Shown here piece after piece: positions 1,468 to 35,943 of a DNA stretch of 64,000 nucleotides. Position 1 is the first letter of the stretch; each line of letters starts with the position of its first letter. A program made the position numbers and the translations under genes. The DNA is from Lentihominibacter hominis (GTDB lineage Bacteria > Bacillota > Clostridia > Peptostreptococcales > Anaerovoracaceae), in assembly GCF_014385065.1 (NCBI RefSeq), contig NZ_JACRTA010000001.1:1-64000 (forward strand), given 5' to 3'. The notes under the pieces are model-generated. The model did not search any database, was not told the origin of the DNA, and saw only the letters and a list, made by a program, of their open reading frames with translations.

Positions 1468-1562
1468 CGTAGAGTAGGTATTGTGCGTAAAGTGTCATAA
1501 GATGGGATGTTGCTTATGAACGAAAGCTTTGCTGCGGTGCAATATCGCGTCCGCTACTACAC
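1468..1562 (+). ncRNA. THF (tetrahydrofolate) riboswitch aptamer
   Basis: The segment carries the conserved THF-aptamer landmarks in order: GAGTAG, GTGCGTAAAGTGT, GGGATGT, GCGGTGCAAT, and GTCCGCTACTAC closing P1 against GTAG at 1469. It lies directly before folT, the usual regulon of this class. CTACAC (1557-1562) is complementary to GTGTAG (1596-1601) in the following hairpin, so P1 and the expression platform can exclude each other. Confidence 0.88.
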
Positions 1563-32986: not shown

Positions 32987-33544
32987 TTACACTATTACTC
33001 TGTCCTGACTTACAATAATATCAGGTTTTACATCATGAGCTTCTGCCGGAAGTTCATTTACAATCTGAAAATCATAACATACAGCCAAAGTTTTGCACCC
33101 GGGATGCCTTTCCAGAAAAATATCGTAGTATCCACCTCCGTACCCAATGCGGTCCCGCGCCTTTGAAAATACTGCTCCCGGCATAATTATAAGCGCGCTC
33201 TCGACATGATTCAGCTTTTCTTCCGAAATGGGCTCAAGGATGCCGAAGGATCCTTTTTTTAAGCTATCACCCACATTATACCGGTAAAAATCCATACTTC
33301 CTTCATCTACCCTTGGAAGCCATAAACGCTTCCCTTCGCCTGTGGCTTCATTCACAAGATAGGTAACATCCACTTCACTTCTTATAGGCATATAGAGACA
33401 TATATCCTCAGCGCTTTTATAGACCTGCGAATTCACCACTGTTCGGCAAACGATCTGAGAATACTGTTTCACCTTGTTCTGGCTCATTGATTTTCTTATT
33501 TTCAGTATATCTTTTCTTATCTCATCTTTGCTTTTCATAATCAT
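32987..33544 (-). CDS. 5-formyltetrahydrofolate cyclo-ligase
   Basis: A 185-residue enzyme converting 5-formyl-THF with ATP to 5,10-methenyl-THF. The N-terminal KDEIRKDILKIRKSMS and MPIRSEVDV are typical, and the glycine-rich RIGYGGGYYDIFL (about 131-143) is the diagnostic nucleotide motif. Either of two ATGs (33544, 33538) could be the start; neither has a clear ribosome site. Confidence 0.9.
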   Translation of the reverse strand: MIMKSKDEIRKDILKIRKSMSQNKVKQYSQIVCRTVVNSQVYKSAEDICLYMPIRSEVDVTYLVNEATGEGKRLWLPRVDEGSMDFYRYNVGDSLKKGSFGILEPISEEKLNHVESALIIMPGAVFSKARDRIGYGGGYYDIFLERHPGCKTLAVCYDFQIVNELPAEAHDVKPDIIVSQDRVIV

Positions 33545-33566
33545 ATCTTATCAAACTTTCATACGC

Positions 33567-33595
33567 TTTACAATCCATACGAAATATGATATCAT
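33567..33595 (+). promoter_or_regulatory. Promoter of the SCIFF locus
   Basis: TTTACA (33567-33572), 17-base spacer, TATCAT (33590-33595), 46 bases before the precursor start. Confidence 0.55.
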
Positions 33596-33641
33596 GACTG
33601 ATAGTAATAAAACAACTATTAACAGAAAGGTGGAACCACAA

Positions 33642-33788
33642 GTGAAGAGAATAAAAACATTAGTATCACGTGATCTTGAAAAATCTGCTAAAACAGGCGG
33701 CTGTGGCGAATGCCAGACTTCATGTCAGTCAGCAAGCAAGACTTCCTGCAGTGTTGCTAATCAGCAGTGCGAAAAGCATAAGAACTAA
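33642..33788 (+). CDS. SCIFF ranthipeptide precursor, five-cysteine variant
   Basis: A 48-residue peptide starting at GTG after AAAGGTGG. The N-terminal leader MKRIKTLVSRDLEKSA is followed by the SCIFF core GGCGECQTSCQSASKTSC (19-36) and NQQC. Cysteines are at 21, 24, 28, 36 and 43. The family name means six cysteines in forty-five residues; here the usual fourth Cys (position 32) is Ser (AGC), and the residue after Cys36, usually Thr, is Ser37. The peptide should be modified by the adjacent radical SAM enzyme. Family function is unknown, though it is nearly universal in Clostridia. Confidence 0.92.
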   Translation: MKRIKTLVSRDLEKSAKTGGCGECQTSCQSASKTSCSVANQQCEKHKN

Positions 33789-33818
33789 CATAGATACTGT
33801 AACACACTGATATTAACC

Positions 33819-33852
33819 GCTGCATCTTTAAGTAGATGCAGCTATTTTCTTG
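33819..33852 (+). terminator. Hairpin between SCIFF precursor and maturase (partial terminator)
   Basis: GCTGCATCT (33819-33827) pairs perfectly with AGATGCAGC (33834-33842), and TATTTTCTTG follows. Position and shape suggest partial termination to make more precursor than enzyme. Confidence 0.55.
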
Positions 33853-33895
33853 TTGCTGCCAAAACACCTTCTGCACATATACGAAAGGAATACAC

Positions 33896-35269
33896 ATGGT
33901 TCATCAATATAAATTAAATGGATATAATATAGTTCTCGATTCAGAGAGCGGCTCCATACATACGGTAGATGATGTCGCCTATGACGTCATAGAGCTGTAT
34001 CAGAATACTCCCAAGGATGACATAGCAGCTGTTATAGCCAAGCGCCACGGAATATCCGCTGAGGAAGTGGAAGAGATAATACAAGACATAGAGGAATTAA
34101 AAAAAGACCGCAAACTCTTTACAAAAGATATTTTCTCAGGACAAGCCGATCTTTTTAAAGAAAGACAGTCTGTAGTAAAAGCCATCTGCCTTCACGTGGC
34201 TCACGGCTGCAATATGACCTGCGGATACTGCTTTGCCGGCGACGGCGAATACCATGGACCTCAGGCATTGATGAGCTATGAAGTGGGAAAACGCGCCCTT
34301 GACTGGCTCATAGAAAATTCCGGTACACGACGCAATCTGGAAGTCGACTTTTTCGGAGGAGAACCTCTCCTGAATTTTGATGTTGTAAAAAAATTAGTCG
34401 CATACGGGAGACAGCAGGAAAAAGAACACAACAAGAATTTTCGTTTTACACTTACAACAAACGGAGTTCTGCTTGATGACGAGGTCATTGACTTTGCCAA
34501 CAAGGAAATGAGCAACGTGGTCATCAGTCTCGACGGAAGAAAAGATATCAACGATAATATGAGAAAAACCCGTGGGGGAAAAGGCACTTACGACATGATT
34601 CTCCCTGCCTTTAAAAAGCTTGCCGAGTCCAGAAACCAGCAGGACTACTATATGCGCGGCACATATACTCACTATAACACGGACTTTACAAACGACATTC
34701 TCCATATGGCAGACCTGGGTTTCAAGGAGCTTTCCATTGAGCCGGTTGTTGCCCCGGACGACGCTCCCTATGCACTGAAGGAATCCGATATGCCCAAGCT
34801 TCTTTCGGAATACGAGCGTCTGGCATGCGAAATACTTGACCGCAAAAGAGAGGGCAAGGGACGTAACTTTAATTTCTACCATTATATGATAGACCTTACA
34901 GGAGGACCTTGTATCGTAAAACGTATATCCGGATGCGGCGTGGGCACAGAATACGTGGCCGTTACTCCTTCGGGAGACCTGTATCCCTGCCACCAGTTTG
35001 TGGGAGACGAAAAGTTTCTCTTAGGCAATATATATGACGGCATAACCAACGACTCTGTATGTCACCAGTTTAAAAGCTGCAACATATATTCCCACGAGGA
35101 ATGCGCAGACTGCTTCGCCAAGCTTTACTGCAGCGGAGGCTGCGCCGCCAACGCCTATCACACCACAGGCTCCATAACCGGAGTATATGATATGGGATGC
35201 CGGCTTCATAAAAAGAGAATAGAGTGCGCCATCATGCTGAAGGTTGCGGAAATGTCAGAGAATCTGTAA
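33896..35269 (+). CDS. Radical SAM SCIFF maturase (thioether-forming, SPASM family)
   Basis: A 457-residue enzyme. The N-terminal recognition-like domain (1-90) should bind the leader. The radical SAM cluster motif CNMTCGYC is at 105-112 and FFGGEP at 152-157. The C-terminal SPASM/twitch region is Cys-rich (GGPC, GCGVG, YPCHQF, SCNIYSHEECADCFAKLYCSGGC) for two auxiliary 4Fe-4S clusters. Characterised members form a Cys-to-Thr thioether in SCIFF. ATG at 33896 follows AAAGGAA; upstream in-frame codons lie in the intercistronic hairpin. The gene's second half is visibly richer in G and C than its first. Confidence 0.93.
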   Translation: MVHQYKLNGYNIVLDSESGSIHTVDDVAYDVIELYQNTPKDDIAAVIAKRHGISAEEVEEIIQDIEELKKDRKLFTKDIFSGQADLFKERQSVVKAICLHVAHGCNMTCGYCFAGDGEYHGPQALMSYEVGKRALDWLIENSGTRRNLEVDFFGGEPLLNFDVVKKLVAYGRQQEKEHNKNFRFTLTTNGVLLDDEVIDFANKEMSNVVISLDGRKDINDNMRKTRGGKGTYDMILPAFKKLAESRNQQDYYMRGTYTHYNTDFTNDILHMADLGFKELSIEPVVAPDDAPYALKESDMPKLLSEYERLACEILDRKREGKGRNFNFYHYMIDLTGGPCIVKRISGCGVGTEYVAVTPSGDLYPCHQFVGDEKFLLGNIYDGITNDSVCHQFKSCNIYSHEECADCFAKLYCSGGCAANAYHTTGSITGVYDMGCRLHKKRIECAIMLKVAEMSENL

Positions 35270-35273
35270 ATAA

Positions 35274-35316
35274 TAAAAAGAGCGGAAATTAGATTGATAT
35301 TTTCTGCTCTTTTTAC
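35274..35316 (+). terminator. Terminator of the SCIFF maturase gene
   Basis: AAAAAGAGCGGAAA pairs with TTTTCTGCTCTTTTT across a short loop, 5 bases after the stop. Confidence 0.8.
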
Positions 35317-35364
35317 TATCCAATAAAATCTTACAGCGTTTTTCGTATACATATTTATCGCTTA

Positions 35365-35943
35365 TCATAACCTCTCAAACTCAACTTTATATGCTCCCAA
35401 TATCTTCCGGCATGGTATTTTCATTTCTTCCATAAATGGATCTGTCCACTGAAACTCACAATCACAATATTCCTTAAAGCCATCTATGACTTCTGACGCT
35501 GCGAAAATATATTTTTTACTATCTTCTTCCCAGAAAAAACATCCATCATTGTCATCTTCAGCAGGACAGCCGCCAACTATACCTACTCCTGTATATTCTA
35601 TAGCAAGAAAAGGTGCAGTAAACTTTATAGTATCTTTCTTTTCAACCGTATCATTGCCGTCATTTTTTTCTCTTTTGTATCTGTCAACATTTTGATAGGA
35701 AATAGACATCCCAGTACTGTCCCAAGTTCTCAGATTAAGCCAGCCTCTTTTTCCCCTCGCTACTACAGGCGTATTGAACTCTATACGAACCATCTCATCT
35801 TCAGCTTCTGAACCAAGATTTTCTTTTCTTATCTCTATATTAATTCTCAATACAGGCCTCAGAGATTCAAATTCATCATAAAGAAGTTTTTTTATCTTAT
35901 CATGTTCAACCTCATAAGCCATAACAAACTGCTTCACTCTCAT
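35365..35943 (-). CDS. Protein of unknown function (192 residues)
   Basis: Not recognised. A soluble, acidic protein without signal peptide or membrane segment; four Cys in the C-terminal half (GGCPAEDDNDGCFFW, EYCDCEF). The N-terminus (YEVEHDKIKKLLYDEF) is helical and the middle looks beta-rich. The ATG overlaps the nudC stop by 4 bases with AAAGGGG as ribosome site, so it is translationally coupled to nudC. It may act in the same redox or nucleotide-related context, but that is inference. Confidence 0.75.
   Translation of the reverse strand: MRVKQFVMAYEVEHDKIKKLLYDEFESLRPVLRINIEIRKENLGSEAEDEMVRIEFNTPVVARGKRGWLNLRTWDSTGMSISYQNVDRYKREKNDGNDTVEKKDTIKFTAPFLAIEYTGVGIVGGCPAEDDNDGCFFWEEDSKKYIFAASEVIDGFKEYCDCEFQWTDPFMEEMKIPCRKILGAYKVEFERL

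What the first reader, a model, noticed from the sequence alone, without database searches (positions are those of the whole stretch)
33642..33788. SCIFF precursor lacking the cross-linking cysteine (five cysteines instead of six)
The SCIFF core is highly conserved across Clostridia. Here the usual fourth cysteine (peptide position 32) is Ser (AGC), and the usual Thr after the next cysteine (position 37) is Ser (AGT). In characterised family members, as I recall them, the thioether joins exactly the Cys and Thr of this CxxxxT segment. Loss of both partners next to an intact maturase suggests a shifted or different cross-link, an unlinked peptide, or a relaxed enzyme.
Basis: partly seen in the sequence, partly recalled or inferred. 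Interest (0 to 1): 0.75.

Follow-up and report, generated by a model that had tools for sequence, protein, structure and literature searches.

The report
SCIFF peptide clade missing linking cysteine
This small modified peptide lacks the cysteine thought to form its chemical ring, and so do the peptides of dozens of related bacteria that keep the modifying enzyme intact, so the enzyme may well make a different link there.

Summary
Window 33642-33788 (+, GTG start) encodes a SCIFF precursor (TIGR03973, 78 bits, cut-off 50) with Ser32 and Ser37, upstream of an intact maturase at 33896-35269 (TIGR03974, 743 bits). It is not a one-off, a sequencing error or a relic. The six nearest relatives share it. 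Of 192 genomes of the order whose core I read, 53 are S32, 68 C32/G37 and 71 C32/T37 (not a random draw). S32 maturases form one clade, with one C-to-S change at 32. Both codons are fossils: S32 and S37 are AGY, while Ser27/30/35 of the same cores are TCN. Maturase residue 349, two residues after the first SPASM cysteine, is Val in 54/54 S32 partners and Ser/Ala in 181/181 C32 partners. 'Both partners lost' is half right: Thr37 is Thr in only 72 of 263 distinct C32 cores, whereas Thr34, the acceptor reported from E. coli co-expression, is invariant in both types and present here. The published Cys32 thioether cannot form; I favour a relocated one, best candidate Cys28-Thr34. Unproven.

The parts
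33642..33788 (+). SCIFF precursor gene (48 aa, GTG start), five-cysteine S32/S37 type
   Evidence: TIGR03973 78 bits, cut-off 50
33626..33633 (+). AAAGGTGG, likely ribosome-binding site, 8 nt before the GTG
   Evidence: read from sequence; inference
33723..33725 (+). codon 28, TGT = Cys28, invariant; proposed substitute donor
   Evidence: invariant in 193/193 S32 and 263/263 C32 distinct cores; role is inference
33735..33737 (+). codon 32, AGC = Ser, where characterised SCIFFs have the donor Cys32
   Evidence: AGY in 60/60 S32 cores, TGY in 216/216 C32 cores
33741..33743 (+). codon 34, ACT = Thr34, acceptor reported from E. coli co-expression of CteA/CteB; invariant
33750..33752 (+). codon 37, AGT = Ser, where C32 SCIFFs have Gly or Thr
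33819..33842 (+). terminator-like hairpin between peptide and maturase genes
   Evidence: 5 terminator-like sites in 33400-35400, both strands, vs mean 1.4, sd 1.1 in shuffles
33896..35269 (+). SCIFF maturase, radical SAM/SPASM (457 aa)
   Evidence: TIGR03974 743 bits, cut-off 425; CteB (PDB 5wgg) 588 bits
34940..34942 (+). maturase Val349, two residues after Cys347, the first cysteine of the SPASM CX12GX4C motif; fully diagnostic for the S32 type in the set examined
   Evidence: V 54/54 S32, S117/A3 of 120 C32/G37, A 61/61 C32/T37; the motif is recalled

Best explanation
The gene is a working member of a five-cysteine (Ser32/Ser37) clade of the SCIFF family that arose once from a Cys32 ancestor, most likely a Cys32/Gly37 one, and was kept with its own adapted maturase lineage. 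Shown: the substitution, its clade-wide retention, its coupling to Ser37 and to maturase Val349, and purifying selection. Inferred: the maturase still binds the leader through its N-terminal domain and still makes one thioether to Thr34, but with another cysteine as donor. The best candidate is Cys28 (Cys-X5-Thr), because Cys28 and Thr34 are invariant while Cys36 is lost in some members. Val349, beside the auxiliary cluster I hairpin, would be part of the re-shaped pocket. My odds: clade-wide functional subtype 0.95; relocated thioether of any kind 0.5; Cys28-Thr34 specifically 0.3. The confidence figure is for a relocated thioether.
For: Nearest relatives L001-L006 are all S32/S37. Of 192 order genomes read: 52 S32/S37, 1 S32/A37, 68 C32/G37, 71 C32/T37. 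S32 maturases are monophyletic (support 0.985 in 144 sequences; 0.85 in 193), with one change at position 32 by parsimony. S32 and S37 codons are AGY only, neighbouring serines TCN only, pointing to TGY-to-AGY and GGY-to-AGY origins. Invariant in all 193 S32 and 263 C32 distinct cores: C21, C24, S27, C28, Q29, S30, A31, K33, T34, S35, N40, Q41. C36 is missing in 6 of 193 S32 cores, so it cannot be the general donor. Site 349 is the only maturase column fully separating S32 partners from the rest. Maturase dN/dS 0.052 and 0.041 against L001 and L002 (dS near saturation, and not computable for the other seven comparisons). The related ranthipeptide maturase PapB accepts Cys-Xn-Asp with n = 0-6 (PMC9413430, abstract and passages), so altered spacing is chemically plausible.
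Against: I found no mass spectrometry of any S32 SCIFF, so a link is not shown. Cys28 and Thr34 are equally invariant in C32 types, so their conservation could reflect another role. The S32 clade arose once in the trees, so the coupling to Ser37 and Val349 is a single event and cannot be told from shared ancestry. Characterised CteB (a Thr37 system) has Ser at the 349 equivalent, not the Ala of the other C32/T37 partners, so 349 does not track position 37 perfectly. In tandem precursors S32 occurs with Gly37, so S32 does not require Ser37. On spacing, a review reports that an earlier study found PapB strict for Cys-X3-Asp, against the later n = 0-6.
Confidence: 0.5

Rival explanations
1. The conserved, physiological product of the whole SCIFF family does not depend on Cys32.
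For: Cys32 is Ser in a whole clade, is also lost in tandem SCIFFs (8 of the 12 tandem precursors seen have S32 in at least one core), and is Arg in P0031 and Phe in P0278. Thr37 is Thr in only 72/263 distinct C32 cores. Published acceptors disagree, Thr37 vs Thr34.
Against: Cys32 is kept in 139 of the 192 order genomes read, and the S32 pattern occurs in only 4 of 391 class genomes, so it seems to matter in most lineages; the three studies cited in the reviews agree on Cys32 as donor.
Confidence: 0.2
2. The S32 peptide carries no thioether. The maturase does something else, or the Cys-rich peptide acts through metal binding or disulfides.
For: The published donor is absent in all S32 cores; CX2CX3C (C21, C24, C28) is invariant and looks metal-binding (inference).
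Against: Maturase under strong constraint, with 11 of 11 checked cluster-region cysteines conserved in 235/235; Thr34 invariant in S32 cores.
Confidence: 0.2
3. Ser32 itself is the donor: the maturase joins Ser32 oxygen to Thr34, making an aliphatic ether in place of the thioether.
For: The replacement at 32 is almost always the isosteric Ser (193 distinct S32 cores against single Arg and Phe records). A radical SAM ether from a hydroxyl is known: TQQ joins a Thr side chain to a Gln alpha carbon (PMC8326336, passages). The pocket differs at 349 together with residue 32.
Against: No ranthipeptide maturase is known to me to use a hydroxyl (recall, not searched); Arg32 and Phe32 variants exist. 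Ser is also simply one base from Cys.
Confidence: 0.08
4. Relic or sequencing error: the peptide is decaying, or the base is wrong.
For: The residue reported as donor is missing; one metagenomic copy with a near-identical start, P0007, runs out of frame after codon 42.
Against: Same state in L001-L006 and in 53 of 192 order genomes read; core non-synonymous differences 0 in all nine comparisons made.
Confidence: 0.02

Closest known systems
Thermocellin / CteA-CteB (Clostridium thermocellum SCIFF pair)
   Same: SCIFF precursor with a maturase homologous to the window's over its whole length (CteB, PDB 5wgg, 588 bits).
   Different: CteA has Cys32 and Thr37; linked Cys32-Thr37 in vitro or Cys32-Thr34 in E. 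coli (reviews, passages). Here 32 and 37 are Ser, and maturase 349 is Val where CteB has Ser.
Tte1186a-Tte1186 (Caldanaerobacter SCIFF pair)
   Same: Described as a SCIFF precursor with its radical SAM maturase.
   Different: Cys32-Thr37 link reported (reviews); the donor is absent here.
C32/G37 SCIFFs (for example in Faecalibacterium gallinarum L025 and Ruminococcus bromii L041)
   Same: The closest maturases outside the S32 clade among the 80 loci kept; same invariant core residues, Thr34 included.
   Different: Keep Cys32; Gly37; maturase Ser349 in 117 of 120 and Phe438 in 120 of 120.
Freyrasin / PapA-PapB
   Same: Ranthipeptide with a radical SAM maturase that groups with QhpD.
   Different: Six Cys-X3-Asp beta-carbon links; the window maturase is below NF047865's cut-off (275.7 vs 340).

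Membership tests
SCIFF precursor (TIGR03973, six_Cys_in_45) | Score above NCBI's curated equivalog cut-off | tested here: met
   78 vs 50 bits
SCIFF precursor (TIGR03973, six_Cys_in_45) | Six cysteines in the 45-residue region (the name) | tested here: not met
   Five: 21, 24, 28, 36, 43. So it is called here a five-cysteine subtype of the family, not a standard SCIFF
SCIFF precursor (TIGR03973, six_Cys_in_45) | Adjacent dedicated maturase (TIGR03974) | tested here: met
   33896-35269, 743 vs 425 bits
SCIFF precursor (TIGR03973, six_Cys_in_45) | One copy per genome (usual, not strictly defining) | tested here: inconclusive
   One in the window; own genome not held; one each in the 8 relatives' genomes held
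Thermocellin-type ranthipeptide | Donor Cys32 | tested here: not met
   Ser32
Thermocellin-type ranthipeptide | Acceptor Thr34 (co-expression) or Thr37 (in vitro) | tested here: inconclusive
   Thr34 present, Thr37 replaced by Ser; which is the true acceptor is disputed in the reviews
Thermocellin-type ranthipeptide | A non-alpha-carbon thioether (-2 Da) in the product | not testable with these tools
   Needs mass spectrometry
SCIFF maturase (TIGR03974) | Radical SAM CX3CX2C and 7-Cys SPASM motif (motifs recalled) | tested here: met
   C105, C109, C112; C347, C365, C403, C406, C412, C416, C435, plus C339, present and conserved in 235/235 maturases
SCIFF maturase (TIGR03974) | Same fold as CteB | not tested
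   Structure prediction was not accepting jobs; sequence homology only

The most novel reading that the evidence does not exclude
The S32 maturase uses the hydroxyl of Ser32 as donor and makes an aliphatic Ser32-Thr34 ether: an oxygen counterpart of the SCIFF thioether, produced by a maturase clade marked by Val349 beside auxiliary cluster I.
Probability: 0.08. Interest if true: 0.85.

Novelty: new variant of a known kind. Interest (0 to 1): 0.6.

Why it matters
SCIFF pairs are spread widely through the Clostridia (review passage), and an earlier bioinformatics paper says that all clear homologs of the precursor appear to be functionally equivalent (PMC5300114, passages). A whole clade has replaced the one residue that the biochemical reports make the donor, while keeping the enzyme under constraint. 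That makes two open questions directly testable: which residues are really cross-linked (Thr34 or Thr37; Cys32 or another), and what in the maturase sets the donor. It also warns that the database name 'six-cysteine ranthipeptide SCIFF' covers peptides that cannot carry the textbook bond (S32 records so named).

Tried and rejected
Second, canonical SCIFF as rescue: none in the window, one per genome in the 8 relatives' genomes held. Pseudogene: disfavoured by constraint. Neighbouring S32-specific helper gene: tblastn of seven window neighbours against loci L001-L080 found only general synteny (LarB and a gene I take from recall for 5-formyl-THF cyclo-ligase in L001, L004-L006; a gene I take for etfA in L004-L006). 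The flanking frames of L002, L003 and L006 I only read by eye; none looked to me like a peptide processor. Cys36 as substitute donor: weakened by S36 in 6 of 193 S32 cores and S/N36 in 10 of 263 C32 cores. An independent test of Val349 in the tandem S32/G37 precursors failed, because I found no held genome with one (148 genomes of the family of G128; one genome each; the two tandem genomes whose letters I read, G128 and G096, are C32/G37 in both units).

Sampling limits. The 192 order genomes read (of 331 with a SCIFF) are not random: most were chosen from listed hits by similarity to the window peptide or to the family model, others as divergent or mid-ranked (G093 and G014 of those 56 not read). 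So 53 of 192 is not a frequency. Rows dropped before the trees and site counts: loci L081-L148 and L269-L272 (duplicates or partial), maturases under 440 residues, without the motif or with unknown residues, identical sequences, and all but 30 of the L007-L080 loci in the trees. L047 gave no peptide under my pattern. The 536 core segments include repeat fetches of the same genomes; the distinct-sequence counts (193, 263) still include close kin, the two records of G378 and the tandem P0123, and predate the tandem records. Only 120 of 457, 658 and 5115 hits were listed. One C32/G37 maturase, L220, groups with the C32/T37 set. Chance note on site 349: by my estimate, not a computed test, roughly a tenth of maturase positions lie within two residues of a cluster cysteine, so its location alone is weak evidence.

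Not in print: I saw no description of Ser32 SCIFFs in the listings of searches (open-licence PMC papers only; listings are titles and abstract starts, with 30 of 129 shown and 5 of 139) or in the passages I opened. The primary papers (Bruender 2016, Grove 2017, Hudson 2019, Haft and Basu 2011, Chen 2020) were not read; I looked up two of them, which are not held. Their content is taken from passages of reviews.

Full report
Observation. The open frame at 33642-33788 is a SCIFF precursor with cysteines at 21, 24, 28, 36 and 43 and serine at 32 and 37. NCBI's equivalog model accepts it (78 bits, cut-off 50), and the gene that starts after a gap of 107 bases is a full-length SCIFF maturase (743 bits, cut-off 425). 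No second SCIFF core was found in the window; the window's genome is not held.

It is a clade trait. The six closest maturase loci of the 80 kept from the genome collection (75-82% identical) all have Ser32/Ser37 peptides; 73 of the other 74 gave Cys32/Gly37 peptides and L047 gave none. In the order of the nearest cultured relative (L002, titled Anaerovorax odorimutans), 331 of 393 genomes have a SCIFF, and 327 of those have one match. I read the core in 192 of these: 53 S32 (52 with Ser37, 1 with Ala37), 68 C32/G37, 71 C32/T37 (chosen, not random). In 391 genomes drawn from the whole class an S32 core pattern (AGY codon, Cys36 required) occurs in 4. Maturases of S32 peptides form one clade (support 0.985 with 144 sequences; 0.85 with 193), with a single inferred change at 32. 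The window maturase evolves under strong constraint (dN/dS 0.052 and 0.041 against L001 and L002, with dS near saturation).

Codon fossils. In 60 S32 cores Ser32 is AGC or AGT every time, and position 37 is AGC or AGT in 59 and GCT in one; Ser27, Ser30 and Ser35 of the same cores are TCN every time. AGY is one base from TGY (Cys) and from GGY (Gly), so a Cys32 ancestor, most simply a Cys32/Gly37 one, is recorded in the DNA. On the midpoint-rooted tree the S32 clade groups with 75 of 76 C32/G37 maturases, apart from C32/T37 (support 0.987), which agrees.

What is and is not lost. Reviews report the link as Cys32-Thr37 in vitro for Tte1186a and CteA, but Cys32-Thr34 with a gamma-carbon bond when CteA and CteB were co-expressed. 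Across 263 distinct C32 cores, position 37 is Gly 190, Thr 72, Ala 1, while Thr34 never varies; glycine offers no gamma carbon, so Thr37 cannot be the general acceptor and Thr34 can (inference). In 193 distinct S32 cores Thr34 is likewise invariant. So the donor is gone and the better-supported acceptor stays. The remaining invariant cysteines are 21, 24 and 28; Cys36 is missing in 6 of 193, and Cys43 was present in 150 of 151 S32 units in the protein records scanned. That is why I favour Cys28-Thr34 over Cys36-Thr34.

The enzyme side. Of about 450 maturase columns, residue 349 alone separates the S32 partners from the rest completely: Val in 54 of 54 S32 partners; Ser 117 and Ala 3 of 120 C32/G37 partners; Ala 61 of 61 C32/T37 partners. 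It lies two residues after Cys347, the first cysteine of the SPASM CX12GX4C motif (motif recalled), in the region I expect to hold auxiliary cluster I. The solved relative CteB has an open site on that cluster, occupied in the crystal by a CteA cysteine that is not the reported donor (PMC6231123 and PMC8326336, passages). Against a neat code, CteB itself has Ser there although its peptide is of the Thr37 kind. Residues 115, 116 and 438 also differ strongly between types, but none separates S32 from the rest completely. All this rests on one evolutionary event, so shared ancestry is a sufficient null; of 30 splits with at least 15 taxa on each side, five have any fully diagnostic column.

A possible second event. 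Tandem precursors with two SCIFF units in one frame turned up in the protein search: of 12 seen, eight have Ser32 in at least one unit, all with Gly37; P0210 is mixed, Ser32 in the first unit and Cys32 in the second (120 of 5115 hits listed). Their maturases could not be reached. They show that Cys32 can be lost without Ser37.

Verdict. Real, ordinary within its clade, and not described in what I could search. It is a five-cysteine subtype of the SCIFF family that cannot carry the published cross-link. What bond, if any, replaces it needs mass spectrometry.

Noticed in passing
P0123, P0202, P0203, P0205-P0208, P0210 (protein records); G128 (L092) and G096 (L365): Tandem SCIFF precursors, two leader-core units in one frame; eight of twelve protein records have Ser32 with Gly37 in at least one unit, P0210 being mixed, which suggests an independent loss of Cys32. 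G128 and G096 are C32/G37 in both units.
   Followed up: partly
P0031, P0278: Single records with Arg32 and Phe32 at the donor position.
   Followed up: no
L329 (G378), P0122, P0124, P0125, P0131, P0149; P0130, P0132, P0145, P0151 and others: Cys36 lost (Ser or Asn) in 6 of 193 S32 and 10 of 263 C32 distinct cores, giving four- and five-cysteine SCIFFs.
   Followed up: partly
C32 SCIFFs generally: Gly37 is commoner than Thr37 among the C32 SCIFFs sampled (190 vs 72 of 263), so the Cys32-Thr37 link reported in vitro cannot be general.
   Followed up: yes
window 33819-33842 (+): Terminator-like hairpin between the peptide and maturase genes, which could set their expression ratio.
   Followed up: no
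P0007 (561-base metagenome contig): Near-identical SCIFF start and core to the window, but out of frame after codon 42; frameshift or sequencing error.
   Followed up: no
window 1468-1558 (+): Tetrahydrofolate riboswitch (Rfam RF01831, 72.3 bits).
   Followed up: no
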